Origin: Desulfobacula sp. | GTDB lineage: Bacteria; Desulfobacterota; Desulfobacteria; Desulfobacterales; Desulfobacteraceae | Assembly: GCA_023701135.1 (NCBI GenBank) | Contig: JAMPXP010000024.1 | Span: forward strand, 1-62,434 | Reading direction: 5' to 3' | DNA: 62,434 nt | In this document: positions 15,358-28,018 of the stretch, in pieces | Numbering within the stretch: the first letter of the stretch is position 1 | Layout of the letters: each line of letters begins with the position of its first letter | Program-made: the position numbers and the translations under genes | The notes under the pieces: generated by a model | Databases searched by the model: none | The model's input: only the letters and a program-made list of their open reading frames with translations | Told to the model about the DNA's origin: nothing

Positions 15358-15395
15358 AGTGACCTACCCTTATCATTCATTCTCAGCCAAAATAA

Positions 15396-15409: not shown

Positions 15410-15443
15410 TTTTTCAGTTTTTACATATAGCTAAAATTTTCCG

Positions 15444-15461: not shown

Positions 15462-15563
15462 TCAAACTCGGCCATTAGCGTTTAAAAGATCGGCCATGGG
15501 AGGGCTGTCCATGCGTTGGAAGATGCTCTTTAAATGTTCATCATAATGAACCGATTTGACCAT
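15462..15563 (-). CDS. Possible 33-residue ORF (leader or gene remnant)
   Basis: The ATG at 15563 has GTGGAG ten bases upstream. The frame encodes MVKSVHYDEHLKSIFQRMDS and thirteen more residues, then stops. The composition looks coding, but no family is recognised. It precedes the polyferredoxin gene by 104 bases on the same strand and may be a leader peptide or a truncated gene. Confidence 0.27.
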   Translation of the reverse strand: MVKSVHYDEHLKSIFQRMDSPPMADLLNANGRV

Positions 15564-15700: not shown

Positions 15701-15973
15701 ATGAGCGTTAATTTACATATCCACATGACCCACCGCCAGCATACCAATGGACTGAAAACCGTGGAGGCCGAGGGGAAAACCATCGGCGAAGCATTGATCC
15801 ATCTGGCTGCCCAATATCCGGGAATGAAAAAGGAGCTGTTCGATAAAAAAGGAGAACTGCGCCATTATATTGAAATTTACCTGAACAATGTCAGCGCCTT
15901 TCCGGAGGAATTGAAAAAACCGGTCAAAGACGGGGATGAGATCCAGATTATCACCTTTCTGGCCGGCGGCTGA
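15701..15973 (+). CDS. MoaD/ThiS-family sulfur-carrier protein
   Basis: This 90-residue ubiquitin-like protein ends in Gly-Gly (ITFLAGG), the site that is adenylated and thiocarboxylated when sulfur is delivered to molybdopterin or thiamine. EIYLNNVSAF and VKDGDEIQII are typical of tungsten/archaeal-type MoaD. Its position beside the AorA/AorC-like genes suggests tungstopterin synthesis for an aldehyde oxidoreductase. It is divergent from those genes and monocistronic. Confidence 0.85.
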   Translation: MSVNLHIHMTHRQHTNGLKTVEAEGKTIGEALIHLAAQYPGMKKELFDKKGELRHYIEIYLNNVSAFPEELKKPVKDGDEIQIITFLAGG

Positions 15974-16043: not shown

Positions 16044-16384
16044 TCACGCCAGCCGTGTATGCTGCTACCAGGCGATGGTGGTGCCCTTGCAATTTCCGGT
16101 GTGTCCCAGGGAGTCGGTTGAATAAATCCGTGATGGGCCCCCGCCTCTCTAAGATATCAAAAATGCCAGGGGAATTTTGGCTTCAGATCCCGGATCATTT
16201 TAATGGTATCCAGGTTCATTTGACGGCTTTATCACCCACCGTTCCCATGAATCCTTTGTCCTTTGCCACATCACAGAAGCTGCATCCCTTCTGGAAGATG
16301 GCCACACTTTTTGGATCTGTCCCATCTTTAAGATCTGCAGGATAATCTATCTGTATTTTTCTTTCTTTTGCCGTATGGGATAAG
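16044..16384 (-). pseudogene. Decayed, internally deleted copy of the radical-SAM-like gene at 17084-18490
   Basis: The segment aligns base for base with three separate parts of the downstream gene: about 17084-17125 (GTATGCTGC.ACCAGGCGATG), 17277-17418 (TCCGGTGTGTCCCAGG through GGTATCCAGGTTCATTTGACGG) and 17711-17874 (CCCATGAATCCTTTGTCC through TTTTGCCG). Two internal blocks (about 150 and 290 bp) are missing. The second junction lies at ATTTGACGG, a sequence present at both edges in the intact copy. There are no long open frames. The 5' third of the gene is absent and is replaced by the toxin-antitoxin pair. Confidence 0.85.
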
Positions 16385-16389
16385 ATGCA

Positions 16390-16746
16390 CTAATCCCGCA
16401 GAAGTTCAACAGGAATATCCATGGCAGCCGCCAGCTTTTCAAGGGTGGCGGACCTGTTCGGGTTCTCTGCCCGCTCCATCTGGGACAGGGCGGCCTGGGT
16501 TATCCCGGCTTTTTTTGCAACTTCTCTTTGCTTTTTGCCCAGATAAATCCGCCATGCTTTAACAAGATTATATCCTTTTTTGATCACAAGCCCCACAACT
16601 TCATGGGGAACAGCATCGTCCTCTTTATACTCCGGGAAGGCTGACAGAAAATCATTGTACGGGATCACGGCAAAAGCAGGAACCCCGTCCTGTTCCAATA
16701 TTTGAACATTAATAGGTGGTTTCATTTCTTTTCTTGACCTCTTCAA
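16390..16746 (-). CDS. XRE-family antitoxin (HigA/RelB-like)
   Basis: This 118-residue protein has a C-terminal Cro/CI helix-turn-helix (GKKQREVAKKAGITQAALSQ, about 68-87) and an N-terminal region that probably wraps the toxin. Its gene overlaps the upstream toxin gene by 38 bases, the toxin-first order of HigBA/RelE-XRE modules. It neutralises the toxin and probably represses the shared promoter. Confidence 0.85.
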   Translation of the reverse strand: MKRSRKEMKPPINVQILEQDGVPAFAVIPYNDFLSAFPEYKEDDAVPHEVVGLVIKKGYNLVKAWRIYLGKKQREVAKKAGITQAALSQMERAENPNRSATLEKLAAAMDIPVELLRD

Positions 16747-16957
16747 TACAAATAATATTTAAATCAGCAGTAAAAAAAACTCTCCAGTTTCCAACCCTCA
16801 ATCTGTACTCTTCTCTATCCACAAGTTTTTTCGCATTCCGGCAATCCGGAAAATGTCTTAAACTATCAACAGCATCGTATATTCTGTTCCGGGTCTGGAT
16901 ATTTTTTATTTTCCTGAGTTGTTTGAGTGCCTTTTTCTGCCACTTGATCTGATTCAT
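16709..16957 (-). CDS. RelE/ParE-family toxin
   Basis: This 82-residue basic protein has the RelE fold pattern: KWQKKALKQLRKIKN helix, then the strand core EEYRLRVGNWRVFFTADLN. Family members are ribosome-dependent mRNA endonucleases or gyrase poisons; the C-terminal catalytic residues cannot be settled by eye. It is first in the toxin-antitoxin pair. The ATG at 16957 has no Shine-Dalgarno and lies inside an inverted repeat. Confidence 0.83.
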   Translation of the reverse strand: MNQIKWQKKALKQLRKIKNIQTRNRIYDAVDSLRHFPDCRNAKKLVDREEYRLRVGNWRVFFTADLNIICIEEVKKRNETTY

Positions 16958-16992
16958 AACTTATAATTATGTTATAAATATAAGCCTGTCAA
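16956..16992 (-). promoter_or_regulatory. Toxin-antitoxin promoter and operator
   Basis: On the minus strand TTGACA (16992-16987) is a consensus -35, followed by AT-rich sequence with CATAAT/TAATTA as -10 candidates. An ATAAC/GTTAT inverted repeat (16956-16960 and 16971-16975) overlaps the -10 and the toxin start, as expected for autoregulation by the antitoxin. Confidence 0.5.
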
Positions 16993-17083
16993 TAGATCAG
17001 ATACTTTTTTAGGCTGATTTTATAAAGACCGTACCGAAATCCATTCACAAAATATTTTTTACAACCTGCCCGGCAATCTCGAG

Positions 17084-18490
17084 TCACACCGGACGGGTAT
17101 GCTGCCACCAGGCGATGGTGGTTCCGAGCCTTTCAAACTGAATGTTTTCCTGTTGTTCGATCTGGCGTATCCAGTCGGCAAGACCGGAGGCATGGTGGAT
17201 AATCAGCGGTGTGCTATGAGGGGGAAGAATATCCATGGCCAGTTGGTACATGGCAATGGTGCGGTCAAGCTCCCTTGCGATATCCGGTGTGTCCCAGGGG
17301 GTTGGATGAATAAATCCGTGATGGGCCCCCTCCTCTTTAAGATATCCGAAGTGAAAGGGGAATTCCGGCTTCAGATCCCGGATCATTTTAATGGTATCCA
17401 GGTTCATTTGACGGGTTACCCCTTTGTTCAGATTTTTCAGGATGGTATCGTCAAAAGATTCAAATCCGATGGAGGCCAAAAGGATCCGGATGTTTTTCTT
17501 TCGGGCGGTTTCAAGGGTGTTCTTTAGGTTTTCCTGTCCCTTCAGAAAATAGTCGGCCCGCAGGGTCAGATTGATCTGGGACAACTCAAGGCTGCACTCT
17601 TCAGCCAGTTCCATGGTACGATCAAGTCTGGGCAGGGGGTTTTCATTGATCAGTTCAAATGCGACCCTGCTACCGTCGGCCTGTCCGGGCAGACAGGCCA
17701 TCTGGGATTTGACGGCTTCTTCACCCACCGCTCCCATGAATCCTTTGTCCTGGGCCACATCACAGAAACTGCAACCCTTCTGGGTGATGGTCACACGTTT
17801 TGGATCTGTCCCATCGGCAAGATCCGCAGGATAATCGATCTGTATTTTTCTCTCTTTTGCCGCATGGGGACATCCGATCTGCTGGAGCACCTGGCAGGAG
17901 GTAACCGGCATCCGGGCAAAGGATGTTCCCTTTAACCGGTAAATATTGGTCCAGTCCACCCGGGACAGCCATTGATCCTCCCATGGGGCAGGACGATTCT
18001 CCTTTATCTGCCCGTCTTTATCCTTAAACAGGACACCGTCAAATTCTGAAATATCACCATCGAGCCCTTTCGCAAGGATGGGCAGGATCGCTTCAGCAGG
18101 TCCCTGCAGGGCAAAGGTAAACCGGTCCGACATTCCCTTAAAGCGATGGTCAAACCGGTCGTGGTCCTTTTCCCCTTTAAAATCGACATTGGCTTGGGGT
18201 CCGGCCAGGATGGTGATGGCACCCTTAGTTTTGAGCTCTCCTGCCAGACCGAACAGGTCCGGTCTTCCGCCAAGGGTTGAAAATCCAATGACCATCCGGG
18301 TTCCCCCAAAATGATGTTCCAGGGCCGCTTTTAGGTCCTTTTTGTCATCTTCATTGGTCACGGCAACGACAATGGCATCATATTCACTGTTTTCGGATAT
18401 AATGGTGGCGGCCATCTGAGGGCCTAAAAGGCCGTAGGACTCCCCTTTAAAATACCCGGTGAGGATGACGAATTTCTTTTTTGAATTCAT
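17084..18490 (-). CDS. Atypical B12-binding/radical-SAM-like protein, unknown function
   Basis: The 468 aa begin with a Rossmann-like segment of the kind that binds cobalamin in B12/radical SAM enzymes ([38 protein letters not shown]). A cysteine set follows: Cys199, Cys207 (GCPH), Cys240 and Cys243 (KGCSFCD). The usual CxxxCxxC is therefore expanded to C-x32-C-x2-C. Downstream, [19 protein letters not shown] and [12 protein letters not shown] resemble the TIM-barrel strands of radical SAM proteins. It is last in a leftward operon and overlaps the J-domain gene by four bases (ATGA). The substrate is unknown. A decayed second copy lies at 16044-16384. Confidence 0.7.
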
Positions 18491-18864
18491 TTCCCCTGAC
18501 TGTCAACCTTTGGAAATGCATTGGGGCCGGTTTTGGGCCGTCTTCTGAAAAGCGTTTCAAAAGCACTGCATTTGCCGCCGTCCATACCGCCGGAACAGTG
18601 ATGCATTCCGCTTTGGCCTGAAGCCCTGGAAGCGGCCCAACTGCCGAACCGGTTAAATCCGGTCATGTCATAGATCCGGCGTTTGCCCTCATCACTCAAA
18701 ACCGCATAGGCTTCCCCGATTAATTTGAACCGGGTTTCAGCCCCCTCGTCGCTGTTTACATCCGGATGAAACTGTCTGGCCAGTTTGCGAAAAGCCTTTT
18801 TTATCTGTTCATCCGTTGCATTGCGGCTGACGCTCAGGGTCTCATAATAATCTTGAGCGCCCAT
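18487..18864 (-). CDS. J-domain (DnaJ-like) protein
   Basis: This 125-residue protein has a J-domain at 5-70, including HPD at 33-35 ([11 protein letters not shown]), which stimulates Hsp70-type ATPases. The remainder is short and rich in Gly, Ser and Cys ([15 protein letters not shown]). It has no zinc-finger or client-binding domains of true DnaJ. The start at 18864 leaves four bases after metF; an upstream in-frame ATG at 18939 would overlap metF by 71 bases. Its operon position next to metF, a EutA-like protein and the radical-SAM-like protein suggests a dedicated co-chaperone for one of them. Confidence 0.85.
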
Positions 18865-18868
18865 GGTC

Positions 18869-19804
18869 TTAATCAACGACCGGCCGGGGCAGAACTTTTG
18901 CCCGTTCTGCAATTTCAGGCACCCTGTGCTCCCATTCAATGGCCATCAGATGGACACCGGCCACACCTTCCATCTCTTTGAATTCCTCGATCTGTTCCAG
19001 CGCAAACTTAATCCCTTCCTCTGCCTGGTCTTTTTTGGGCACGCCTTTAAAACGTTTGATCAAAGGTTCGGGGATATCCATACCCGGAACAAACTTGGAC
19101 ATGAAATTGGCCATCCCGGCGCTTTTCATGGGTGTGACACCGGCCAGGATATAGCACTTTTCGTGGAGCCCCATATCCACGGCTTGTTTCATGAAGATAC
19201 GGAATTTTTCCATATTAAAAATGCATTGTGTCTGGACAAAATCCACACCGGCCTGTATCTTTTTGGCAAGCCTGAACACCCGGTATTCAAAAGGGTCTCC
19301 AAACGGGTTGGATGCGGCCCCGATAAACAGTTTGGGCGGCCCGTCAATGTCCTCGCCATTCAGGAACTTGCCCTCGTCCCGCATTTTCTTCACCATGGCA
19401 ATCAACTGCATGGAATCGATATCATGGACCCCTTTTGCCTCGGGATGATTCCCGAAAGACGTGTGGTCGCCTGACAGACACAGCATATTCCGGATACCCA
19501 TGGCATAGGCCCCTAAAATATCGCTCATCATGGCCAGGCGGTTCCTGTCCCGGCAGACCATCTGGAAATTGGGTTCAAGCCCTTTTTTCATCATCAGAAC
19601 CGAGCCGGCAATGGAAGACATCCGGACCACGGCGGTCTGGTTGTCCGTCATATTCACGGCATCCACGACCCCCACCAGGTGACTTAGTTTTTCATTCAAA
19701 TGGTCGATATTGGCGCCTTTTGGGGGACCGCATTCTCCGGTGAAAGCAAAATGGCCCGCATTCAGCACCTTTTCCAGATTACTGCCTGATTTAAGCTCTT
19801 TCAT
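18869..19804 (-). CDS. metF: Methylenetetrahydrofolate reductase MetF
   Basis: This TIM-barrel flavoprotein of 311 aa reduces 5,10-methylene-THF to methyl-THF, or runs in reverse in the oxidative Wood-Ljungdahl pathway. Family segments are [55 protein letters not shown] and [10 protein letters not shown]. MetV lies two genes upstream in the same operon, the arrangement of the MetFV-type reductase of anaerobes, in which MetV supplies FeS electron transfer. A gap of 98 bases with imperfect repeats of CTGGTCGGTAT separates it from the EutA-like gene. Confidence 0.92.
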
Positions 19805-19902
19805 CGATCGTTTTTCCTTCTTATTTGTCTATTCTGTATCTGGTCGGTATCTGGCCGGTATCCGGCCCATTACAAGGGTGATCTTCGGATACACGGACTG
19901 TT

Positions 19903-21351
19903 TCAAACTTTCCGGGTATCATGGAAAATCAGCGACTTAACGGTCACCGGGAACACCTGGTTTTTCACCAACGGCTCACCAATGTCGATCCAGTCGCCAT
20001 CCTTAAGATCCAACTCATCCAGGGTGAGCAGGTTGGTTTTAAGGCCTGTTTCCCGGCGGATGACATTTCCCACACCACAGGCAATATCGGCCCGAAAAAT
20101 AAGAATAATGGGAATGTGTTTCCCGATTGAATTCACCAGTGCCGACTCAATGGCTTTACCGAACATGACCAGCTTCTGGTAGGAATTGTGGGTGAGACCC
20201 TTAAAATAAAGCGCCACGGTCTCAGCCCCCTCGGACAGATCAAACCGCTTAAAAGACCTTTCAATTTCAGATGTGATATGGTCAAGGCTTAATTTGTCCT
20301 GATTCACGTCAACCCTGAGCACCGGTACGTTCCACATGGGAAACGTAAGCTGGTCGTCCATGAATCCCGAGGAGCCCGATATGGATAATGTATGGGCACC
20401 GGCACCGATGACCGTGGCCCTTATCTTGTTTTCAGGTTCAAAGACCGGTCCGGAAAGCTTTGGGAGCAGCGTCTTGATTTCAGCGGCCAGGTAGGAACCG
20501 ATATCATTGTGCCAAAACCCATTACAGCCGTAGAGCAATTCAGAGACACCGCCTGAAAAGGTGTATTCGTCGATTTTCCTGGAAAAGTCCAGATCGTCGG
20601 TGATCATCAGATCTTTGGCAAGGGCTGAGACAGCCGGACCATTGATGACCTCTATAAGGGTTTGGGCCAGCAGGGCGGTTATTTTTTTAAGCGATTCTTC
20701 AGGGATTACATCGTCCACATCATAGTGCACCCCCAGATGGGCCATGACTTTTTTGGCAGAGTCACTGGTCCGGAGAATTTTTCTTTTGGCATCCAAGGCC
20801 AGGAGCCGCCCGCCCACCGAAATGCTGCTGGTGGATACGACCTCTCCGTTGCAGGAGATGGCCATATTGGATGTACCGCCGCCGATATCACAGGAAAGTA
20901 TGGTTTTAGCGGTTTGCTTTGAGCGGTCGACGGCACCTGACCCCATGGCCGCAATCAGGCTCTCAAAATTGGGTCCCGCAGTTGCGGCGACAAATTTACC
21001 GGCATCGCTGGACAAGGCGGCCGCGATCGCTTCCGCATTCTGCTTTTTGGCTGTTTCCCCGGTGATGATCACAGCCCCGGTTTTGACATCATTCTGCTTT
21101 ATACCCGCACGGATGTACTCCTGTTTGAAAAACCGGGTCAATTGCTCGATATCTATGGTCTGATGGTCCTTTAAGGGAGTATCGATAATCTCTCCCTCAT
21201 AAACGACCTTGCGGTCAACAACATGGAACCGCCGGGTGGGGGATGTTTCGTCTCTTTTGAGCAGCAGGTTTGAAAAAGCCAGATGGCTTGTGGATGATCC
21301 CACATCAATCCCGACACTGAGCAGTTCTATCTCATTAATTTCCATGGACAC
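19903..21351 (-). CDS. EutA-like ASKHA protein (ethanolamine ammonia-lyase reactivase family)
   Basis: The 482 aa match the EutA family: the first phosphate loop VGIDVGSSTSHLAFSN near the N-terminus, VIITGETAKKQNAEAIA, the second phosphate motif LSCDIGGGTSNMAI, FSGGVSELLYG and VIGAGAHTLSISGSSGF. EutA is an actin/Hsp70-fold ATPase that exchanges damaged cobalamin out of ethanolamine ammonia-lyase. No EutB or EutC lies in the window. It is co-transcribed with metV, ferredoxins and metF, so it may instead service a different cobalamin enzyme or an adjacent gene product. Family assignment is strong; client unknown. Confidence 0.85.
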   Translation of the reverse strand: MSMEINEIELLSVGIDVGSSTSHLAFSNLLLKRDETSPTRRFHVVDRKVVYEGEIIDTPLKDHQTIDIEQLTRFFKQEYIRAGIKQNDVKTGAVIITGETAKKQNAEAIAAALSSDAGKFVAATAGPNFESLIAAMGSGAVDRSKQTAKTILSCDIGGGTSNMAISCNGEVVSTSSISVGGRLLALDAKRKILRTSDSAKKVMAHLGVHYDVDDVIPEESLKKITALLAQTLIEVINGPAVSALAKDLMITDDLDFSRKIDEYTFSGGVSELLYGCNGFWHNDIGSYLAAEIKTLLPKLSGPVFEPENKIRATVIGAGAHTLSISGSSGFMDDQLTFPMWNVPVLRVDVNQDKLSLDHITSEIERSFKRFDLSEGAETVALYFKGLTHNSYQKLVMFGKAIESALVNSIGKHIPIILIFRADIACGVGNVIRRETGLKTNLLTLDELDLKDGDWIDIGEPLVKNQVFPVTVKSLIFHDTRKV

Positions 21352-21355
21352 ATCC

Positions 21356-22027
21356 TTAAAGCGGTTTATTAAAAGGCCGGACCAGTTTTCTGGGTCCTGC
21401 GCCTCCGGCCGGCTGCCAGTTTTTCGGTTCCCTGACTTTCATCAGACGGTGGAGCTGACCCGTCTTTTTAAGCTTGTAGTAAATCATGGCCCAGGCGCAG
21501 ACTGTATTTTTATCAACCTCGCAGCTTCCGTTACTGGAACCGCCGCAGGGTCCGTTAAAAAGGGTTTTCGCACATCTTGCAACGGGACATATCCCCCCTG
21601 TATGACCCAGCAGACAGTCCCCGCAGCCCTGGCACATCTCCTGCCAGACACCCGGTTCCACATTCGAGCCCATGAACGTGGTATTGACGGCCGGGATAAC
21701 AGGCAAAGATTCGAAAAAGAAGGCCATGGTCTGCACACCGGCCCCGCAGGCAAGGCTCAGCACTGCATCCGTGTTTTCGGGAATGGTTAAATAGTCTTTC
21801 AGCCAGTCCGGTTCACATTGTCGCTCAATGGTATGGACTGTAAATTTGGGCTTCCCGGTTTTGTAATGCCGGATATGATCCAGCTCCGTTGCCAACTGAT
21901 GGGCCTGTCTGTCTCCTCCGGTGAGACAGACGGAAACGCAGCCGCCGCAGCCCAGAACAAAGATATTTTTATAATCCCCAAGGCTTTCGATAATTTCTTC
22001 CAATGGTTTAAGATTGCCGACAATCAT
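21356..22027 (-). CDS. metV: MetV, zinc/FeS partner of methylenetetrahydrofolate reductase
   Basis: This 223-residue protein corresponds to the MTHFR C-terminal (MetV) family. FVLGCGGCVSVCLTGG is at the N-terminus. The Cys-rich core includes CQGCGDCLLGHTGGICPVARC and GPCGGSSNGSCEV. MetV forms a complex with MetF and passes electrons from ferredoxin-type partners. Its start overlaps the stop of the ferredoxin gene upstream by four bases, and the EutA-like gene starts four bases after it. Confidence 0.88.
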   Translation of the reverse strand: MIVGNLKPLEEIIESLGDYKNIFVLGCGGCVSVCLTGGDRQAHQLATELDHIRHYKTGKPKFTVHTIERQCEPDWLKDYLTIPENTDAVLSLACGAGVQTMAFFFESLPVIPAVNTTFMGSNVEPGVWQEMCQGCGDCLLGHTGGICPVARCAKTLFNGPCGGSSNGSCEVDKNTVCAWAMIYYKLKKTGQLHRLMKVREPKNWQPAGGAGPRKLVRPFNKPL

Positions 22028-22467
22028 ATTGCACCACCTCTCATGTCTGGTCTTACATCGGGTCTTATATCCGGTCTTATATCCGGGGATTTCCTTTTCA
22101 GAAAATGGGCCTTTGCAGCCCGGGTCACCTCATCCCGATGTTTGGAACAGGTAGGCTCACTTTCCTTGCCCAGTTTCTCAGATAATGTCCGCCTGTAATC
22201 CACTGTATATATGGGGACGCCACAAACGCTGCAATAGACCAGTTCAAGTGATTTTACCTCATCCCAGCCGTTCTCGAGCATGAATTGAAATTCGATGGCT
22301 TTCTGGGGACAGATACGATAGCAGTTGCCGCAACGCGCACAGCGTGCCATATTATGGGAAAGCACGCGGTTTGCATCTGAATCCTCCGCGCGCAATGCAT
22401 TTGCCGGGCAGTTCTGGACACAGGCCAGGCACCCGTTACACTGATCGTTTACTTGAAAATAGCGCAT
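22024..22467 (-). CDS. Ferredoxin with two [4Fe-4S] and a zinc-ribbon-like CxxC, repetitive tail
   Basis: The N-terminal half (147 aa in total) carries two ferredoxin motifs (CNGCLACVQNCP and CARCGNCYRICP). Then YCSVCGVPIYTVDYRRTLSEK suggests an additional CxxC metal site, with a later Cys in PTCSKHRDE. The C-terminus ends in a short tandem tail, D-I-R-P repeated, encoded by near-identical 12-base units at about 22039-22086. It is translationally coupled to metV. The likely role is feeding electrons to or from MetFV. The tail looks like recent slippage. Confidence 0.85.
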   Translation of the reverse strand: MRYFQVNDQCNGCLACVQNCPANALRAEDSDANRVLSHNMARCARCGNCYRICPQKAIEFQFMLENGWDEVKSLELVYCSVCGVPIYTVDYRRTLSEKLGKESEPTCSKHRDEVTRAAKAHFLKRKSPDIRPDIRPDVRPDMRGGAI

Positions 22468-22547
22468 GACGTTTGACTCCGTCTGTTCTGTTGTTATTTT
22501 GCCTTAATTTGTATATTGGACCCATCTCTCTGATTTATCTGCCTGAT

Positions 22548-23036
22548 TCATCTCCGCACACCAGCGGTGCGTCTTAATGCGGATGCCCTGGTCTGGTCGT
22601 ATTGAATCATGGCGGAATCCTTTAATGTTAAGGCTCCCGGCTCACAAAAGTGAACGCACAAGGGATCTCCCCCGCAAAGATCACATTTAAACGGCCGCCC
22701 CCGATCCTCATCAAACCCGATGGCACCGAAACTGCATGCGTTAAGACACATTTTACAGCCCACACATTTATTGTAATCAATGACGGTCTGCACCAACGGC
22801 TCATCCATTCTGCTGATGGCCTCCTTGGGACATGCCGCAATGCAGGGTGCATCTTCGCAGTTCTGGCAGACCAGGGGCAGATACCGGCCGCATTCATCCA
22901 TCTGAATCACCCGAATACGGGATTTTTCCGGGTTGCAGACCCCGGCTTTCCGGATGGCGCAGGCCGTCCGGCACATCCTGCAACCGTTGCATTTATTTGG
23001 ATCGGATATCAGTATTTTCATGGTCATTCTCATCAT
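22548..23036 (-). CDS. Polyferredoxin (four [4Fe-4S]), AOR small-subunit type
   Basis: This 162-residue protein is organised like the AOR-linked small subunits at 14869 and 26621: CNGCRMCRTAC, CQNCEDAPCIAACP, CVGCKMCLNAC and CDLCGGDPLCVHFC. It lies 25 bases after the core-less AOR-like gene and 80 bases before the next ferredoxin. The exact start is uncertain: M1, M4 and M6 are all close, with M6 (MKILISDPNKC) the usual family start. It probably partners the AOR-like protein encoded just upstream. Confidence 0.87.
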   Translation of the reverse strand: MMRMTMKILISDPNKCNGCRMCRTACAIRKAGVCNPEKSRIRVIQMDECGRYLPLVCQNCEDAPCIAACPKEAISRMDEPLVQTVIDYNKCVGCKMCLNACSFGAIGFDEDRGRPFKCDLCGGDPLCVHFCEPGALTLKDSAMIQYDQTRASALRRTAGVRR

Positions 23037-23061
23037 TATATATATTAAGCTGTAACGATTC

Positions 23062-24054
23062 CTATTTTAACCGGCTCCACAGATCATCAATCCGAAGCGG
23101 GTCAAACACCTTTGTTTTTTGAACCACAGCCTTTCGGGTCCATCCGTTTGTCCGGTAATTGTCGGCCTGCTGCCCCTGGCTTGTGGCAATCCCTTCCCTT
23201 AAATTATAGATGCGCTCCATGGCGACGCAGCGGTAGGCAATTTGTTTTAATTCATCTTCATCCAGAACAAGTCCGGTATTGAGCAGAATCCTGTCGGCAG
23301 CCGTTTGAAAATTGAGTTCACTATTGCCCGCACCTGTCTTTGTTCCTGACGGCAGCCCGAGGCACTGTACCCCGAGGATCTGCATAAGGGTCTGTTTTAT
23401 TTGAGCCAGATCAACTGATCCTGCCGGACCTTCCATGATTTCCGAATCCTGACCGTTTTGGTCCGGGGTGTTTGGGGCCGGAGAGTCATCAATACTTTCA
23501 AGAAACTTTTTCTCATAGGCAATAATGCCTTCGGGATCTTTTACTTCCAATGCGACTGTGCCGCTGCAAACCATGGCCAAGACATTTTTTGCCGCCAGGA
23601 CATCTTTGCGGAGTATGGCTCGCTGGTCAGATAAATTTTTATCCTTTAAGCCGTGTGCCTCTTTAAATTCAATGCGGCCATCCCGGATCAGCAGGCAGGT
23701 TTCATGTTTAGCCCGTCCTTTCAACACCAGGTGGTCAAAGCCGGCCTGGCGCATCTCAGCAGCAAAAGGACCGTCTACGCACTCTCTGGCCATAAACCCC
23801 GTGGCCGTGGACTTGCTTGTCAACACAGTCGCCCCAAGGGGCGCACTCAACGTACCGCTCAGATATCCCGCACTGACGATGCATATATTATCGGCGGAAC
23901 CCGGGTCGACCATTTTGGGCGCATGCTTGCAAAAAAGGTAGGTGGCAACACCACTACCGCCAAGGAATCTTTGTTCAAGATCCATTGATACCGGAAACGT
24001 TTCCGCCTCACACCGGCCGAGGTCCACCAGTGCAATTCTTCGGTCCGTCGTCAT
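23062..24054 (-). CDS. Core-less paralogue of aldehyde:ferredoxin oxidoreductase
   Basis: The 330 residues match both ends of the AOR encoded at 24650-26590 but not the middle. Residues 1-190 follow AOR domain 1 (RFLGGSGVATYL; SGTLSAPLGATV; AGFDHLVLKGRAK; IAYEKKFLE). About 60 low-similarity residues follow, then the C-terminal AOR end (LLNTGLVLDEDELKQIAYRC, MERIYNLREGI). The CxxCxxxC and later Cys that hold the AOR cluster are missing, as is the GAVMGSKNLKA segment. It is therefore probably non-catalytic. GAGGAGG precedes the ATG. It is first in the leftward operon. Confidence 0.82.
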   Translation of the reverse strand: MTTDRRIALVDLGRCEAETFPVSMDLEQRFLGGSGVATYLFCKHAPKMVDPGSADNICIVSAGYLSGTLSAPLGATVLTSKSTATGFMARECVDGPFAAEMRQAGFDHLVLKGRAKHETCLLIRDGRIEFKEAHGLKDKNLSDQRAILRKDVLAAKNVLAMVCSGTVALEVKDPEGIIAYEKKFLESIDDSPAPNTPDQNGQDSEIMEGPAGSVDLAQIKQTLMQILGVQCLGLPSGTKTGAGNSELNFQTAADRILLNTGLVLDEDELKQIAYRCVAMERIYNLREGIATSQGQQADNYRTNGWTRKAVVQKTKVFDPLRIDDLWSRLK

Positions 24055-24123
24055 ATCCTTTCCTCCTCATTTATCAGGGAAAGCCTTTTTAAATTATCTG
24101 TCAAGCCATCTGAATTTTTAAAC

Positions 24124-24153
24124 TTGACAAAGTCGAATTCTGTTCGCTATATT
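24124..24153 (+). promoter_or_regulatory. Promoter reading toward the zinc-ribbon/AOR operon
   Basis: TTGACA (24124-24129), 18-bp spacer, TATATT (24148-24153). The -10 lies inside an operator-like palindrome (24143-24156). The resulting leader would be about 195 bases and contain two further operator copies. Confidence 0.55.
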
Positions 24154-24156
24154 GAA
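24143..24156. promoter_or_regulatory. Operator copy 1, TTCGCTATATTGAA
   Basis: This is a 14-bp near-palindrome with two differences from TTCACTATAGTGAA at 24275. It covers the rightward -10 and lies just after the leftward promoter, so one bound regulator could block both directions. Confidence 0.5.
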
Positions 24157-24160
24157 TAGC

Positions 24161-24190
24161 AAAATATCAAATAGCCGCCAGAGATGTCAA
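24161..24190 (-). promoter_or_regulatory. Promoter reading toward the core-less AOR/MetFV operon
   Basis: On the minus strand TTGACA (24190-24185) is followed after 18 bp by TATTTT (24166-24161). The leader would run about 100 bases to the ATG at 24054. Confidence 0.45.
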
Positions 24191-24274
24191 GCAAAAAACA
24201 TCAATAATTGGCCGGAAGAGTTTAGTTATTTGATTTTTTAGACAAAAACAACAGGGTCGAAAACCGGAAAAAGA

Positions 24275-24288
24275 TTCACTATAGTGAA
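24275..24288. promoter_or_regulatory. Operator copy 2, perfect palindrome TTCACTATAGTGAA
   Basis: This is a perfect 14-bp palindrome in the divergent intergenic region. Size and symmetry fit a dimeric regulator such as the IclR-type protein encoded at 27254-28018. The regulator assignment is inferred from neighbourhood only. Confidence 0.6.
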
Positions 24289-24306
24289 TAAGTCCAAGAA
24301 ATAAAA

Positions 24307-24320
24307 AACACCATAGTGAA
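24307..24320. promoter_or_regulatory. Operator copy 3, half-conserved (AACACCATAGTGAA)
   Basis: The right half-site ATAGTGAA is exact and the left half is degenerate. It begins 32 bases after copy 2, about three helical turns, which would place both on the same DNA face. Confidence 0.45.
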
Positions 24321-24354
24321 CTTTTTCGAAAACTCAAAAAGGAGATGGGTAACA

Positions 24355-24648
24355 ATGGCAAGGGAAGAGAACCAATTAACCGGCGCGGAAAGTCTGCAGC
24401 AAACCAGGACATTCGGCAAAGTCAGGTGCCACAACCCAAGTTGTATGGAACGTATCGTTCCTGAACCAGGCGCAGACCATGCCAAATGCGCAACCTGCGG
24501 CATGGAGTTTCGTATTTTCTGGGTCAATCCCAAACTACCGAGAATCAGAGGACCGGTCTGGGACGTGAACAGAAAGATCGCACAGGATCGTTTCAAAGAA
24601 GTCACTGAGGCTAAATTAAAAGCGGCTGAAAAAAAGGGGGGCAAATAA
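24355..24648 (+). CDS. Small zinc-ribbon protein upstream of AOR
   Basis: From the ATG at 24355 the protein has 97 aa: two CxxC/CxxxxC-type pairs (KVRCHNPSCMERI and AKCATCGMEFRI, a four-Cys zinc ribbon or rubredoxin-like knuckle) and a basic C-terminal helix. AAGGAG lies 11 bases upstream; an earlier in-frame ATG at 24316 would fall in the operator region. It ends one base before the AOR start, so the two are coupled. I do not know a described function. It could be a metal or maturation factor, or a small subunit. Confidence 0.7.
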   Translation: MAREENQLTGAESLQQTRTFGKVRCHNPSCMERIVPEPGADHAKCATCGMEFRIFWVNPKLPRIRGPVWDVNRKIAQDRFKEVTEAKLKAAEKKGGK

Positions 24649-24649
24649 C

Positions 24650-26590
24650 ATGGCATTAGACAGAAAGATCGCCTATATCAATCTGACCACAGGCGACATT
24701 GAGATAAAGCCCATACCAATGGAAGTCAGGAAAAAATTTCTGGGCGGCAGGGGCCTTGACGCCTACCTGCTTTACAACCATACGAAAAAGGGATGTGATC
24801 CGCTTGGACCTGACAACGCACTGATCATCAGCGGCGGAATTCTGTGTGCCACTTTAGCATCCGCCACCGCCAGAACCCATGTAATGGCAAAATCGCCCCT
24901 CACCGGGCTTCTGGGAAGCTGCAACATGGGTGGTTTTTTTGCACCTGAAATGGCCTGGGCCGGATTCCACCACCTGGTCATCAAAGGCAAAGCCAAAAAA
25001 CCAAGCTATATTTATATCAACAATGGTAACATCGAAATCAGGGATGCTGCCAACATCTGGGGAAAAACCGTTACCGACACCCAGTGGGCCATCCATGATG
25101 AATTGAATGACAAAGAAGTGAAAAGCCTTGTCATCGGACCTGCCGGTGAAAATCTCGTGGCCTTTGCCAACGTGATGACCGGTGTCAAAAATGCCGGCGG
25201 CAGAACCGGTATGGGTGCTGTCATGGGATCCAAAAATTTGAAGGCTGTCTCCTGCCGCGGCACCATGGACGTCAAGATCGCCCATCCTGTGGAAGCGCTG
25301 GAATACAATAAAAAATTCATCGAGCAGATCACCGGTGCTAAAGTCAGCCAGACCCAGGGCACTTTGGGCACACCCTTTATCTGGGGCGCCACCAATTCCT
25401 GGGGCGGTGTCAGGACGGAAAATTTCAGGTACAACCAGTTGGAATATGCCGATGACATCGAACCGGAACGTATTGATGAAATCGCCACTGAAACCATGGG
25501 ACCCTACCATATGGCCGGCTGCTTCGGCTGCCAGGTTCACTGCCGGGCCCAGTATAAAATCCCGTCGGGCAAATACAAGGGTAAATACGACGAAGGTCCG
25601 GAATACACCTCCCAGGGTGCTTTTGGCGCAGAAGTCGGTTGCCGGAGCGCGGAAACGGTTCTGGCGGGCAACCATCTTGTGGATCAGTTCGGTATGGACA
25701 ACCTTGAAACCGGAAGCATCATTTCATGGGCCATGGAATGTTTTGAAGAAGGCCTTATCACCAAAGATCAGACAGACGGCATTGATTTGCGCTTTGGCAA
25801 TGATGAAGCTGTCCTGGAAATGATAGAGCGCATCTGCTACCGCAAGGGATGGCTGGGCGACGTTCTGGCAAAAGGCGGTATCCCGGCCTCTAAGGATATA
25901 GGGAAAAACTCCTTTGATTATCTCATCCAGGTAAAGGGGATGAACAACCTGCACTCTGACGAAAGGGCCACCCCCGCACTTGCACTCAATATCGCCACCT
26001 CATCCAGAGGGTCCGACCACCTGAGAAGCCGGCCGGCCATCGATCTCTACCATCTGCCGGAAAAGGTGCTGCGTAAAATTTACAGCACACCGGTTCCCTA
26101 TGACGGCCCCTTAAGCTCTGAACATACCGAATATGTGGGCAAACCCTGGCAGGTCTTCTGGCAGGAAAACTGCTATATGGCCGTGGACAGTCTGGGTATC
26201 TGCAAATACCACACCACGTTCCTTGGCGCCACCCTGCCCAATTTCGAAAACTGGCCCAAGGTGCTTTACCTGAACACGGGGATTGAGATGACACCCGAGG
26301 AGATCTGGCAAGTCGCAAGAAGAAACAACATGATCGAACGAATGTTTAATCTTAGGGAGGGGGCAACCCGTAATGATCCGGAAAAAGGGGATGTGCTGAA
26401 TCATCGCTATCATGATGAACCTTGTAAGAGGGGAGCCATCGACGTTATCGGAAGATATATCATCAAAGAGAAATTCGATAAAATGGTCGATGAATTCTAT
26501 GAACACAAAGGGCTGGACAAAAACGGTATTCCCAAAAAGAGTACACTGAAAGAACTTGGCCTGGAAAACGAACCCTCACATCTGCTGTAA
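24650..26590 (+). CDS. Tungsten aldehyde:ferredoxin oxidoreductase family protein (AOR/BamB-like)
   Basis: This 646-residue catalytic subunit has domain 1 motifs FLGGRGLDAYLL, GGRTGMGAVMGSKNLKA and FFAPEMAWAGFHHLVIKG. The cluster ligands are CxxCxxxC at 291, 294 and 298 (GCFGCQVHC) plus Cys518 in DSLGICKYHT. It ends with ERMFNLREGATRNDP. Family members oxidise aldehydes to acids with ferredoxin, or (BamB branch) reduce aromatic acyl-CoA rings. The operon has a small zinc-ribbon upstream and a polyferredoxin 30 bases downstream, as in AOR, WOR5 and BamBC pairs. The substrate cannot be read from sequence. Confidence 0.92.
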   Translation: MALDRKIAYINLTTGDIEIKPIPMEVRKKFLGGRGLDAYLLYNHTKKGCDPLGPDNALIISGGILCATLASATARTHVMAKSPLTGLLGSCNMGGFFAPEMAWAGFHHLVIKGKAKKPSYIYINNGNIEIRDAANIWGKTVTDTQWAIHDELNDKEVKSLVIGPAGENLVAFANVMTGVKNAGGRTGMGAVMGSKNLKAVSCRGTMDVKIAHPVEALEYNKKFIEQITGAKVSQTQGTLGTPFIWGATNSWGGVRTENFRYNQLEYADDIEPERIDEIATETMGPYHMAGCFGCQVHCRAQYKIPSGKYKGKYDEGPEYTSQGAFGAEVGCRSAETVLAGNHLVDQFGMDNLETGSIISWAMECFEEGLITKDQTDGIDLRFGNDEAVLEMIERICYRKGWLGDVLAKGGIPASKDIGKNSFDYLIQVKGMNNLHSDERATPALALNIATSSRGSDHLRSRPAIDLYHLPEKVLRKIYSTPVPYDGPLSSEHTEYVGKPWQVFWQENCYMAVDSLGICKYHTTFLGATLPNFENWPKVLYLNTGIEMTPEEIWQVARRNNMIERMFNLREGATRNDPEKGDVLNHRYHDEPCKRGAIDVIGRYIIKEKFDKMVDEFYEHKGLDKNGIPKKSTLKELGLENEPSHLL

Positions 26591-26620
26591 CGGGCAGTTC
26601 GGATAGAAAAGGAGAACACA

Positions 26621-27130
26621 ATGCAATCAAATAGCAAGGTTTTATTGATAAATCATGAAAAATGCACTGGATGCAGGCTTTGTGAACAGGTTTGTGCGGT
26701 AAGGCACCACGGCGCATCCAACCCGAGCCGGAGCCGTATTCGCGTGATGAAGTGGGAGATGGAGGGGCTTTACGTGCCTGTCTCCTGTCAGCAATGCCAG
26801 GACGCGCCCTGTCTGAACGGCTGCCCTGTCAGCGCCATATCCCGCAATGAAGCGCTGAACCGGGTCGAAGTGGATTACGACCTCTGCATCGGCTGCCGGA
26901 CCTGTGTTTCGGTCTGCCCTTTCGGCGCCATGCACTACAATGCCATCGACAGACAGGTTGCCAAATGCGATCTTTGTGAAGGAGACCCCCAGTGCGTCAG
27001 ATTTTGTGATGTAAAGGCCATTGAGTACACGGATGGCGGTGATGTCAGCATTGAGAAAAAAAGAGCGGCTGCGCTTCGCCTGTCAACGGTAAAGAAACAG
27101 GCAATGGCTCTGGAACAACATACTGCTTAA
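26621..27130 (+). CDS. Polyferredoxin subunit of the AOR
   Basis: This 169-residue small subunit has four [4Fe-4S] motifs: CTGCRLCEQVC, CQQCQDAPCLNGCP, CIGCRTCVSVCP and CDLCEGDPQCVRFC. AAAGGAG lies before the ATG. Directly downstream of the catalytic gene, it is the likely electron acceptor that links the AOR to soluble ferredoxin or a flavoprotein such as that at 13543-14808. A terminator follows. Confidence 0.9.
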   Translation: MQSNSKVLLINHEKCTGCRLCEQVCAVRHHGASNPSRSRIRVMKWEMEGLYVPVSCQQCQDAPCLNGCPVSAISRNEALNRVEVDYDLCIGCRTCVSVCPFGAMHYNAIDRQVAKCDLCEGDPQCVRFCDVKAIEYTDGGDVSIEKKRAAALRLSTVKKQAMALEQHTA

Positions 27131-27174
27131 GGACCGGCTCCAGATCAGATTTTTTTTGCGAGCGGTTGAAAAAC

Positions 27175-27216
27175 AAGGGGCCCCATTAGGTTGATTCGAT
27201 TTAATGGGGCCTTTAT
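27175..27216 (+). terminator. Terminator of the AOR operon
   Basis: A perfect 10-bp stem GGCCCCATTA (27179-27188)/TAATGGGGCC (27202-27211) has a 13-base loop and is followed by TTTATA. It overlaps the -35/-10 region of the next gene. Confidence 0.65.
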
Positions 27217-27219
27217 ACT
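27191..27219 (+). promoter_or_regulatory. Promoter of the IclR-type regulator
   Basis: TTGATT (27191-27196), exactly 17 bp, TATACT (27214-27219). It gives a leader of about 28 bases to the ATG at 27254. It is embedded in the preceding terminator hairpin. Confidence 0.5.
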
Positions 27220-27253
27220 TCGGTATCATTTAGAGAACTTATTAGGGTGAACA

Positions 27254-28018
27254 ATGGTAAAAAAATATCAGGCCCCCATTATTAAAAAGGCATTTGTCAT
27301 CCTGGATGTCATATCCAAAAGCACCCAGGGACTGCGGATCAGTGAGATTTCCTCACGTCTTGACATCAGCAAAAGTACGGTTCACGGCATTACGGCCGCC
27401 CTGGAAGATGCGGGTGCTCTCGTGCGGGACTCGGTATCCAAAAGATACACCATCGGTCTTACCCTGATGACGCTGGGCAAAGCCGCCTATGAACGCATCG
27501 ATTTTAAAAACATCGCCCGCCCCATTATGGAAGATCTCATGGAGCAGTGCCAGGAATCGGTTTTCCTGGGGGTCAGAAACGGGGAGAGCGTCACCGTGAT
27601 CGATATTATTGAATCCAGAAAGGATTTTAAAATCACCTCCCCCATCGGCACCACCCTGCCGCTGATGGCAGGGGCTGTGGGTAAATTATTCCTGTCTCAA
27701 ATGGATTCCCACGACCTTAAAAAATATCTGCATGCCAACCCTCTGGTAAGATACACCGCCAACACCATTATTGATTCCGATCTGTATGCAAAAGAACTTG
27801 AGAAGGTCAGACAGTCAGGCATTGCCACGGATGATCAAGAATATCTGTCCGGCGTACGTGCCGTGGCCGCCCCCATCAAAAAATACGGCGCCCACATTCC
27901 GGCCCTCTGGGTCGTCGGTTTCAAGGCATCCATGTCGGACAAAAAAATGCCCGCCATTATCGAGCAGACACGGTCCGCCGCTGAAAAAATCAACAAAAAG
28001 CTGGCCCTCGGGTTCTGA
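27254..28018 (+). CDS. IclR-family transcriptional regulator
   Basis: The 254 aa contain an N-terminal winged helix-turn-helix (LRISEISSRLDISKSTVHGI, about 31-50) and a C-terminal IclR effector domain (ECQESVFLGVRNGESVTVID; IGTTLPLMAGAVGKLFLS; YLSGVRAVAAPI). IclR proteins are dimers that bind small organic acids and recognise short palindromes. It is adjacent to the AOR operon and is the best candidate for the TTCACTATAGTGAA sites at 24.1-24.3 kb. The bases 28019-28139 downstream hold no gene. Confidence 0.9.
   Translation: MVKKYQAPIIKKAFVILDVISKSTQGLRISEISSRLDISKSTVHGITAALEDAGALVRDSVSKRYTIGLTLMTLGKAAYERIDFKNIARPIMEDLMEQCQESVFLGVRNGESVTVIDIIESRKDFKITSPIGTTLPLMAGAVGKLFLSQMDSHDLKKYLHANPLVRYTANTIIDSDLYAKELEKVRQSGIATDDQEYLSGVRAVAAPIKKYGAHIPALWVVGFKASMSDKKMPAIIEQTRSAAEKINKKLALGF

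What the first reader, a model, noticed from the sequence alone, without database searches (positions are those of the whole stretch)
16044..28018. Undescribed-looking divergent locus joining AOR, a core-less AOR paralogue, MetFV, a EutA-like protein, a J-protein and an atypical radical-SAM-like protein
Seen: eight leftward genes, mostly overlapping or tightly spaced, face a zinc-ribbon/AOR/polyferredoxin operon, with an IclR regulator next to it. Known: AOR moves electrons between aldehydes or acids and ferredoxin; MetFV reduces methylene-THF; EutA reactivates a cobalamin enzyme. Inference: the locus couples an aldehyde or acyl oxidation to C1-folate metabolism through dedicated ferredoxins, with a built-in repair team for a cobalamin or radical enzyme. 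Ethanolamine ammonia-lyase would yield acetaldehyde, an AOR substrate, but EutBC are not here.
Basis: partly seen in the sequence, partly recalled or inferred. Interest (0 to 1): 0.78.

Follow-up and report, generated by a model that had tools for sequence, protein, structure and literature searches.

The report
Tungsten aldehyde-oxidase regulon with repurposed EutA
A sulfate-reducing bacterium carries a self-contained, apparently jointly controlled set of genes around a tungsten aldehyde-oxidising enzyme, including a repair-type protein normally tied to vitamin-B12 ethanolamine breakdown and a worn-down copy of the enzyme itself; much the same set recurs in many relatives, so it looks like a real but undescribed variant of a known enzyme system.

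Summary
The genes are there, and the set is not private to this strain. The EutA-like proteins form a supported clade (29 bacterial rows), apart from EutB-linked EutA; 26 of 28 such genomes lack EutB. The clade tracks one AOR lineage and its zinc ribbon (26 of 28 genomes, against 49 of 361 others). A 16-bp palindrome (GTTCATTATAATGAAC-like) precedes AOR, IclR, MetV/EutA, MoaD, AorC and membrane-ferredoxin operons. In this genome the four intergenic exact matches all lie in the window; they add an AorC-ferredoxin operon and a MoaD gene (13543-15973) to the locus. MetV here is a dedicated paralogue, usually without MetF. The core-less AOR ends a series of shrinking pseudo-AORs without the [4Fe-4S] motif. 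The radical-SAM protein has its first motif cysteine set apart by 29-45 residues. Best reading: an IclR-controlled tungsten AOR with exchangeable electron outlets (AorC; MetV-ferredoxin with or without MetF; membrane ferredoxin), plus EutA-fold ATPase and radical-SAM factors that probably mature or maintain the AOR. C1-folate coupling is possible in a subset only. A present cobalamin or ethanolamine role is not supported. New variant of a known kind; biochemistry untested.

The parts
13543..14808 (-). AorC-like FAD/NAD(P)H oxidoreductase (421 aa)
   Evidence: Pyr_redox_2; best PDB match 8c0z_E, the AorC of Aromatoleum AOR, E 8.5e-46, only just ahead of NADH oxidases
14869..15357 (-). AorA-like ferredoxin of the AorC operon
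   Evidence: Fer4 domains; 36% to the AOR's own ferredoxin; operator 46 bp upstream
15395..15410 (.). operator ATTCATCATACTGAAT before the ferredoxin-AorC operon
   Evidence: PWM 18.8 bits; exact pattern match
15536..15551 (.). operator GTTCATCATAATGAAC, 157 bp before the MoaD-like gene
   Evidence: PWM 26.6 bits; exact pattern match
15701..15973 (+). MoaD/ThiS-like protein (tungstopterin sulfur carrier, inferred)
   Evidence: PF02597; MoaD-like gene in 16 of 32 EutA loci and 7 of 19 other AOR loci
17084..18490 (-). atypical radical-SAM-like protein, motif C-X32-C-X2-C
   Evidence: Radical_SAM 25 bits, under the curated 29.5; matched by all 21 members scanned; motif
18487..18864 (-). J-domain protein (125 aa, HPD); start corrected
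   Evidence: PF00226 91 bits; start
18869..19804 (-). MetF-type methylene-THF reductase
   Evidence: PF02219 134.9 bits; dN/dS 0.055-0.086 in the four comparisons over 311 codons
19903..21351 (-). EutA-like actin/Hsp70-fold ATPase, AOR-linked clade
   Evidence: PF06277 443.6 bits; clade 100/99; both phosphate motifs in 29 of 29 clade rows
21356..22027 (-). MetV paralogue of the AOR-linked clade
   Evidence: PF12225; clade; motif cysteines shared with one other MetV of this genome
22024..22467 (-). Fd2: two-cluster ferredoxin with cysteine-containing tail
   Evidence: Fer4_7; next to MetV in relatives
22548..23036 (-). Fd4a: AorA-like ferredoxin paired with the pseudo-AOR
   Evidence: best PDB match 8c0z_C (AorA), E 4.4e-34
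23062..24054 (-). AORn: core-less pseudo-AOR (330 aa)
   Evidence: AFOR_N 113 bits plus C-terminal tail; cluster motif deleted; dN/dS 0.23-0.37
24142..24157 (.). operator GTTCGCTATATTGAAT, 96 bp before AORn; contains the -10 of the best promoter-like site (TTGACA at 24124, rightward)
   Evidence: PWM 13.5, just over the threshold of 13; promoter-like 11/12
24274..24289 (.). operator ATTCACTATAGTGAAT (perfect palindrome) before the zinc-ribbon/AOR operon
   Evidence: PWM 21.4; exact on both strands
24316..24648 (+). zinc-ribbon protein (an in-frame ATG lies at 24355)
   Evidence: no curated family passes its cut-off; present in 68 of the 69 class genomes that have this AOR
24650..26590 (+). tungsten AOR, AorB-like (646 aa)
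   Evidence: AFOR_N/AFOR_C; best PDB 9mqx, 1aor; BamB ranks lower
26621..27130 (+). Fd4b: AorA-like ferredoxin of the AOR
   Evidence: 8c0z_C E 1.3e-39
27254..28018 (+). IclR-family regulator, probable operator-binding protein
   Evidence: IclR_C/HTH_IclR; IclR gene in 23 of 32 EutA loci and 17 of 19 other AOR loci, 23 independent operator sites have it as first mapped gene

Best explanation
The locus is one IclR-controlled regulon built around a tungsten aldehyde oxidoreductase of the Aromatoleum/Pyrococcus AOR type. SHOWN by sequence: (1) the core zinc ribbon-AOR-AorA-like ferredoxin with a neighbouring IclR; (2) a shared 16-bp palindrome before the AOR, MetV/EutA, MoaD, AorC and IclR units; (3) alternative electron-transfer units beside the same AOR in different genomes: a ferredoxin-AorC pair, a (pseudo-AOR)-Fd4a-Fd2-MetV unit with or without MetF, or a membrane ferredoxin protein; this genome has the first two; (4) a EutA clade without EutB that goes with this AOR lineage. 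INFERRED: the AOR oxidises an aldehyde (or reduces an acid) at its tungstopterin; electrons run through Fd4b to one of the outlets, AorC to NAD or Fd4a/Fd2/MetV to MetF or another acceptor; the pseudo-AOR is a structural docking or capping partner of Fd4a. MoaD and the zinc ribbon serve cofactor supply or assembly. The EutA-fold ATPase and the rSAM protein mature, remodel or reactivate the AOR, as EutA remodels ethanolamine ammonia-lyase. IclR binds the palindromes and represses the units until an aldehyde-derived or acid effector binds.
For: Co-occurrence over 389 class genomes: EutA clade 28, zinc ribbon 75, both 26 (p 1.3e-18); rSAM 38, of which 34 with the zinc ribbon (p 1.3e-23). On the AOR tree EutA presence needs 6 changes (4 forced when scored by locus; 6 again when scored by genome), so EutA seems to have come and gone repeatedly beside this AOR. 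EutA lies in a zinc ribbon-AOR-Fd4b-EutA run in 5 genomes; in MetF-Fd2-MetV-zinc ribbon-AOR-Fd4b-EutA in one outside the class; and behind a paralogous AOR in AOR-Fd4b-MoaD-Fd2-MetV-EutA in 2. Operators: 120 sites in 51 loci, 64 in the regions used for training and 56 outside, against 3 to 12 in Markov sequences; 1 in 17 control loci (expected 1.3). Own genome: 5 distinct exact places, 4 intergenic here, the fifth inside an open frame; reversed control 0. AOR-linked MetV is its own clade (100/99) and keeps the motif cysteines. AorC and AorA matches to 8c0z; in that enzyme AorC caps and nucleates the AorA/AorB wire and passes electrons to NAD (PMC10413684, passages).
Against: No activity, substrate, complex or metal is shown, and IclR binding is not shown. 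The AOR lineage lives without EutA in 47 class genomes, so EutA is not essential to it. One isolated EutA (G072, about 42 kb from its AOR on the same contig) has no operator in the 20 kb held around it, and another (G349) has none in the 436 bp held upstream. One EutA-clade genome, G225, has EutB and no other EutA, so a cross-role is possible there. An AOR in a real ethanolamine cluster is known (PMC6436200). AORn evolves faster than the AOR (dN/dS 0.23-0.37 against 0.04-0.08) and is in pieces in L033, so it may be decaying. Both structure models are poor (pLDDT 47.9 and 52.4). A -35 box is not clearly enriched at operator sites (11 of 214 site-strands against 3.0%).
Confidence: 0.55

Rival explanations
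1. One reading: the locus physically couples AOR to C1-folate metabolism. Electrons from aldehyde oxidation pass through the dedicated ferredoxins and MetV to MetF, which reduces methylene-THF (or the reverse).
For: MetF directly follows EutA in six loci of the window's genus (the window and 5 relatives) and heads a seven-gene co-directional array with Fd2-MetV-zinc ribbon-AOR-Fd4b-EutA outside the class (G652). MetF-MetV enzymes take electrons from reduced ferredoxin (PMC8515935, abstract and passages).
Against: MetF is in only 7 of 32 EutA loci and 0 of 19 other AOR loci, while MetV is in 20 and 7. The genome has five MetV and eight MTHFR-family matches. AOR-linked MetV is a separate clade.
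Confidence: 0.22
2. EutA here reactivates a cobalamin enzyme, either the locus's rSAM (if it is a cobalamin-dependent one) or an unlinked mutase or lyase that makes the aldehyde.
For: Family membership. The rSAM's top Foldseek hit is CysS (E 4.4e-3, prob 0.96; that CysS is a cobalamin rSAM methyltransferase is recalled), from a poor model. EutA and rSAM co-occur in 18 genomes (p 6e-14; weaker, p 0.014, among AOR/zinc-ribbon genomes). An AOR gene sits in the ethanolamine cluster of Thermacetogenium phaeum (PMC6436200, passages). G225 has EutB and only this EutA.
Against: 10 of 28 EutA-clade genomes lack the rSAM, five of them at least 92% complete by the tool's figure (one of these, G256, has a contig end at the locus), and 20 rSAM genomes lack the EutA. 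No Pfam cobalamin-binding domain in any of 21 rSAM members at E up to 0.1. No PDB sequence matches the rSAM profile at E up to 1. EutB absent in 26 of 28.
Confidence: 0.18
3. A loose aldehyde-response regulon: genes share a regulator because each is useful on aldehydes, without physical coupling or a special EutA-AOR action.
For: Shared operators with variable gene content and order; EutA and rSAM are often absent.
Against: Tight operons with overlaps or gaps of a few bases; a dedicated MetV clade and a retained pseudo-AOR with its own AorA-like ferredoxin suggest specific partners.
Confidence: 0.25
4. Chance neighbourhood of unrelated genes.
For: Order is not fixed; EutA of G072 and G349 is unlinked to the AOR in the stretches held.
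Against: Co-occurrence p 1e-18, zinc ribbon within the held stretch in 24 of 31 bacterial EutA loci, operators.
Confidence: 0.02

Closest known systems
AorABC of Aromatoleum aromaticum (PDB 8c0z; PMC10413684, passages read)
   Same: AorB-like AOR, AorA-like ferredoxin and an AorC-like flavoprotein are all in the window
   Different: Here AorC has its own second ferredoxin and operator; a second outlet (pseudo-AOR, Fd4a, Fd2, MetV), EutA, rSAM, zinc ribbon and IclR belong to the set
EutA, ethanolamine ammonia-lyase reactivating factor (role read in PMC5821096, passages)
   Same: Full-length PF06277 match and nucleotide-binding motifs
   Different: Separate clade, no EutBC or microcompartment genes identified beside it, linked to an AOR
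Ethanolamine cluster with an AOR in Thermacetogenium phaeum (PMC6436200, passages)
   Same: An AOR gene encoded with ethanolamine genes and expressed on ethanolamine
   Different: That cluster has ethanolamine ammonia-lyase and microcompartment genes; none here. No sequence comparison was made
MetFV-type methylene-THF reductase (PMC8515935, abstract and passages; PMC9430772, passages)
   Same: Both subunit families present with the MetV cysteines
   Different: Dedicated MetV clade, order MetV-EutA-MetF, usually no MetF, no Hdr genes in the run
Class II benzoyl-CoA reductase BamBC (PDB 4z3w)
   Same: Same AOR superfamily with a ferredoxin subunit
   Different: AOR and its ferredoxin score higher to AOR-type chains than to BamB/BamC
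WOR1 complex (PMC12096430, passages)
   Same: AOR-type subunit plus polyferredoxin joined to extra subunits in one operon
   Different: The extra subunits here are MetV/Fd2/pseudo-AOR or AorC; no sequence comparison with WOR1 partners was made

Membership tests
EutA (ethanolamine ammonia-lyase reactivase) | full-length PF06277 match | tested here: met
   residues 9-477 on profile 2-475, 443.6 bits
EutA (ethanolamine ammonia-lyase reactivase) | actin/Hsp70-type nucleotide-binding motifs | tested here: met
   both phosphate motifs in 29 of 29 clade rows, adenosine motif in 28 (motif definitions recalled)
EutA (ethanolamine ammonia-lyase reactivase) | EutB in the same genome | tested here: not met
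   absent in the own genome and in 26 of 28 clade genomes; 2 of 2 positive controls hit
EutA (ethanolamine ammonia-lyase reactivase) | groups with EutB-linked EutA | tested here: not met
   29 bacterial rows apart, 100/99, with a Heimdallarchaeota sister 99/99; the join to the other EutA branches is weak (81/40)
EutA (ethanolamine ammonia-lyase reactivase) | ATP-dependent exchange of damaged cobalamin | not testable with these tools
   needs protein
AOR sensu stricto (AorABC type) | AFOR_N and AFOR_C domains with CxxCxxxC and distal Cys | tested here: met
   CFGCQVHC and DSLGIC (motif assignment recalled)
AOR sensu stricto (AorABC type) | AorA-like ferredoxin and AorC-like flavoprotein | tested here: met
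   the AorC match is only slightly better than to NADH oxidases (E 8.5e-46 against 1.9e-45)
AOR sensu stricto (AorABC type) | tungsten and aldehyde oxidation | not testable with these tools
   needs protein
BamB (class II benzoyl-CoA reductase) | closer to BamB than to AOR | tested here: not met
   1aor 307.7 bits, 4z3w 225.6 bits
MetV of methylene-THF reductase | PF12225 and metal-ligand cysteines | tested here: met
   124.2 bits; cysteines shared with one other MetV of the genome (ligand role recalled)
MetV of methylene-THF reductase | paired with MetF | tested here: inconclusive
   MetF in the window, but in 7 of 32 and 0 of 19 related loci
MetV of methylene-THF reductase | groups with other MetVs of these genomes | tested here: not met
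   separate clade, 100/99, holding 27 AOR-linked and 2 other rows, against 27 sampled others; some long branches are flagged
Radical SAM superfamily | PF04055 match | tested here: inconclusive
   25 bits against 29.5 for the window protein; 21 of 21 members match at E up to 0.1, best 2.8e-9
Radical SAM superfamily | canonical CX3CX2C | tested here: not met
   C-X29-45-C-X2-C in 26 of 27, the 27th with GCGFC; canonical motif recalled
J-domain co-chaperone | J domain with HPD | tested here: met
Ethanolamine-utilisation locus | EutBC and shell genes in the locus | tested here: not met
   none identified in the annotated run; EutB search of the genome empty

The most novel reading that the evidence does not exclude
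EutA-fold ATPases are not only cobalamin-enzyme reactivases: one clade, shared by sulfate reducers and a Heimdallarchaeota MAG, has become an ATP-driven remodelling factor for a tungsten enzyme. It acts together with an unusual radical-SAM maturase (cluster motif split by an insertion of about 30 residues) on an AOR wire that carries exchangeable electron outlets docked by a catalytically dead AOR subunit.
Probability: 0.3. Interest if true: 0.82.

Novelty: new variant of a known kind. Interest (0 to 1): 0.63.

Why it matters
How tungsten enzymes of the AOR family are assembled, kept alive and wired to different acceptors is poorly known; many clades are still purely hypothetical (PMC12096430, passage). 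This regulon offers a testable operator, a defined gene set in relatives of a genus with cultured members (recalled), and three interchangeable outlets on one conserved AOR. If EutA serves the AOR, a protein family named after ethanolamine breakdown would be misnamed in these genomes. If MetV is the outlet, aldehyde oxidation may feed C1-folate chemistry in some sulfate reducers.

Tried and rejected
Ethanolamine degradation by this genome: rejected, no EutB in the assembly.

Benzoyl-CoA reductase (BamB): rejected on PDB scores.

rSAM as EutA's obligatory client: rejected, 10 of 28 EutA-clade genomes lack it.

MetV as simply the general methylene-THF reductase subunit: rejected by the tree, with the caution that some rows have long branches.

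Structure of the rSAM from four sequences (pLDDT 47.9) and of AORn from eleven (pLDDT 52.4): too poor to show whether the three cysteines meet or whether AORn folds. The Foldseek hit to CysS (no hit at E 0.001 or below) is kept only as a weak lead. A PDB profile search with 21 rSAM sequences found nothing at E up to 1.

A general -35 box beside the operators: 11 of 214 site-strands against 3.0% in nearby controls, not convincing.

Rfam (gathering threshold) and tRNA scans of the window: empty.

A wider regulon in the own genome: besides the 4 window places, one search lists 13 distinct places within one mismatch (one of them exact, on C15; count). I read the gene context of 11 (fetched, examined): 10 lie inside an open frame, the exact one among them, and one lies 10 bp before an ATPase-like frame of no evident relation. 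Those on C5 and C24 were not read.

Literature: searches gave zero papers; one search gave 33, of which I saw 10 listed, none on point; one search gave 2, not on point; one search gave 3, of which I read passages of PMC6436200: it reports an AOR in an ethanolamine cluster of an acetogen but, in the passages seen, no MetV or EutA beside an AOR outside such a cluster ('EutA' does not occur in its main text). This covers only the open library. The Desulfobacula toluolica genome paper was not read.


Full report
WHAT IS THERE. The window lies in a genome of 4.8 Mb in 42 contigs. Its nearest named relatives by EutA are a Desulfobacterales MAG at 93% and Desulfobacula MAGs at 90-92%. On the minus strand, from 24054 to 17084, run AORn, Fd4a, Fd2, MetV, EutA, MetF, a J protein and an rSAM-like protein, with gaps of 98 bp or less or 4-bp overlaps. 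Facing them are a zinc ribbon, AOR, Fd4b and IclR. Corrections: the J protein probably starts at 18864; 16044-16389 is a broken rSAM copy and 16390-16957 a toxin-antitoxin-type pair.

CONSERVATION. A search of 389 genomes of the class with the EutA-like protein hit 48; 28 are at 62% identity or more, and I set the other 20 (weaker matches) aside. In the phylum draw of 336 genomes, five carry it at 62% or more, three of them outside the class. A Heimdallarchaeota MAG has it at 53%. The tree of 48 EutA rows puts 29 bacterial rows together (100/99) with the archaeal row as sister (99/99), apart from the other EutA copies, among which L060-L063 and L073 overlap EutB matches. EutB was found in 2 of the 28 clade genomes (G225, G381) and in 2 of 2 controls. 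G381 has a second, distant EutA beside it; G225 has none, which weakens a clean split of roles.

THE CONSTANT PARTNER IS THE AOR. Counting in the same 389 genomes: zinc ribbon 75 (16 weaker rows's 91 dropped; one partial contig-edge hit kept), AOR at 75% or more 69 (12's 81 dropped), rSAM 38 (7 weak rows's 45 dropped, fragments kept). Zinc ribbon and AOR go together in 68 genomes. EutA clade with zinc ribbon: 26 of 28, against 49 of 361. EutA with AOR: 22 of 28, against 47 of 361; among the six misses, G256, G242 and G381 have cut or split contigs there. rSAM with zinc ribbon: 34 of 38, against 41 of 351. Related genomes are not independent, so the p values are too small, but the label scatters over the AOR tree (6 changes). 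In the stretches held around 32 EutA loci, the zinc ribbon is present in 24, IclR 23, MetV 20, Fd2 20, AOR (70% or more) 20, a MoaD-like gene 16, rSAM 11, Fd4a 10, pseudo-AOR 7, MetF 7, membrane ferredoxin 5, J protein 4, AorC 2. In 19 further AOR loci, chosen from the zinc-ribbon hits: MetV 7, rSAM 5, AorC 4, pseudo-AOR 4, MetF 0. Three of those 19 come from genomes with EutA elsewhere. Many contigs end inside the locus, so these counts are lower bounds.

OPERONS. EutA is the fourth gene of a zinc ribbon-AOR-Fd4b-EutA run in L036, L037, L040, L049 and L240. It closes MetF-Fd2-MetV-zinc ribbon-AOR-Fd4b-EutA in L239, outside the class. It closes AOR-Fd4b-MoaD-Fd2-MetV-EutA, with an AOR paralogue of 57-59%, in L047 and L048. 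Elsewhere it follows MetV or IclR, or stands alone in the stretch held.

OPERATOR. A palindrome search of 39 upstream regions of the zinc-ribbon gene found GTTCAT-N4-ATGAAC (one mismatch allowed) in 25, against a maximum of 4 for any palindrome in 10 single-base shuffles. A weight matrix from those regions finds 120 sites in 51 loci: 64 in the training regions and 56 elsewhere. Markov expectation was 3.0 in one run and 4, 6 and 12 in three others. Seventeen control loci (EutA loci of the other branches, and this genome's other MTHFR loci) have 1 against 1.3. The first mapped gene after the 56 independent sites is IclR (23), MoaD (10), a Fd4a-type ferredoxin (7), the membrane ferredoxin (4), EutA (1) or MetF (1); 10 have no mapped gene. 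The operon holding EutA has a site within 450 bp in 22 of 31 bacterial loci; in the window's genus this is the divergent region also used for training. Three more (L047, L048, L056) have sites further up by my reading. L059, L057 and L020 have 224 bp or less of upstream sequence, L045 and L051 have about 500, and none of these five shows a site; L044 is a clear negative, as is the archaeal L038. In the window the four sites precede the ferredoxin-AorC operon, MoaD, the AORn operon and the zinc ribbon; one, the weakest, contains the -10 of the best promoter-like match of the region. In the whole genome the pattern has five distinct exact places; the fifth is inside an open frame. That IclR is the binding protein is inferred from its constant position.

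OUTLETS. Beside the same AOR lineage lie ferredoxin-AorC (window, L033, L204, L206, L211, L216), the Fd2-MetV unit (20 of 32 EutA loci, 7 of 19 others) or a membrane ferredoxin protein (L041-L043, L048, L217, L221), sometimes two of them. The AorC-like protein's best PDB match is AorC itself, though NADH oxidases score almost as well. In the Aromatoleum enzyme, AorC caps and nucleates an AorA wire and passes electrons to NAD (PMC10413684, passages). MetV is a ferredoxin-accepting electron module in MetFV enzymes (PMC8515935, abstract and passages). The AOR-linked MetVs are one clade (100/99) with 27 linked rows and two others, both from EutA-clade genomes whose EutA locus has the membrane outlet; the 27 remaining rows sampled fall outside; several rows have long branches. 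Of 20 EutA loci with MetV, 6 also have MetF. Electron flow to MetF is therefore plausible in Desulfobacula and G652 but cannot be the general function.

PSEUDO-AOR. Relatives show 555, 538, 531, 316-374 and, in the window, 330-aa versions; all nine aligned lack the CxxCxxxC region and keep the first domain and the C-terminal tail. The window copy evolves under weaker constraint (dN/dS 0.23-0.37) than the AOR (0.04-0.08; a paralogue comparison for L032 left out). It may be a docking or capping subunit, or on its way out.

ATYPICAL rSAM. In 26 of 27 proteins the cysteine pattern is C-X29-45-C-X2-C with GCSFC, the 27th having GCGFC, and all 21 members scanned match Radical_SAM at E up to 0.1. Its gene follows Fd4b in several genomes. 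It is absent from 10 EutA-clade genomes, five of them at least 92% complete, so it is not EutA's necessary client.

FUNCTION. The most economical reading is an AOR regulon with exchangeable outlets and two accessory factors. That EutA acts on the AOR is inference from its distribution. An AOR inside the ethanolamine cluster of Thermacetogenium phaeum, expressed on ethanolamine (PMC6436200, passages), suggests how EutA and AOR may first have met; I made no comparison with it. No tool here can show substrate, metal or complex.

LITERATURE. Open-library searches for EutA, IclR or MetV with AOR found no description of this set in what I saw (10 of 33 listed). The D. multivorans proteome paper mentions three AORs without such genes in the passages seen (PMC5109826).

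I corrected the count of other pattern places (13), the distance in G072 (about 42 kb), the number of near-complete genomes without rSAM (five) and the basis for the zinc ribbon, and added the T. phaeum precedent.

Noticed in passing
16044-16389 (-) and 28036-28131 (+): Broken copies of parts of the rSAM gene on both sides of the locus (75-83% and 53% identity), a trace of past rearrangement.
   Followed up: partly
16390-16957 (-): Xre-type antitoxin and ParE-type toxin genes between the intact rSAM gene and its broken copy.
   Followed up: no
29383-33126 (+): Xanthine-dehydrogenase-type molybdenum hydroxylase genes next to the locus; no operator site beside them.
   Followed up: no
48609-62432 (-): A single open frame of about 4607 aa that reaches the window's end.
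   Followed up: no
L038:9233-13347: The Heimdallarchaeota EutA lies between a small GTPase and genes that look like LarC and LarB of nickel-pincer cofactor synthesis (identification recalled from sequence).
   Followed up: no
L217:12834-13019: A remnant of about 62 residues of EutA beside the AOR-linked IclR of G267, whose intact EutA sits with a paralogous AOR elsewhere: apparent transfer within the genome.
   Followed up: partly
L241, L242, L244: Genome G580 has four further EutA-like proteins (34-42%) and G682 one; in the three stretches listed, neighbours look like F420-type biosynthesis, a UbiD-like gene or a pyruvate-carboxylase-like gene (recalled names) rather than EutBC, so the EutA family has other unexplored branches.
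   Followed up: no
own genome, contigs C7, C23 (two), C31: Four further MetV copies, each with an MTHFR-family match within about 112 bp: several parallel methylene-THF reductases in one sulfate reducer.
   Followed up: partly
G225 contig C120:7378-8679: EutB in a genome whose only EutA match is the AOR-linked type.
   Followed up: no
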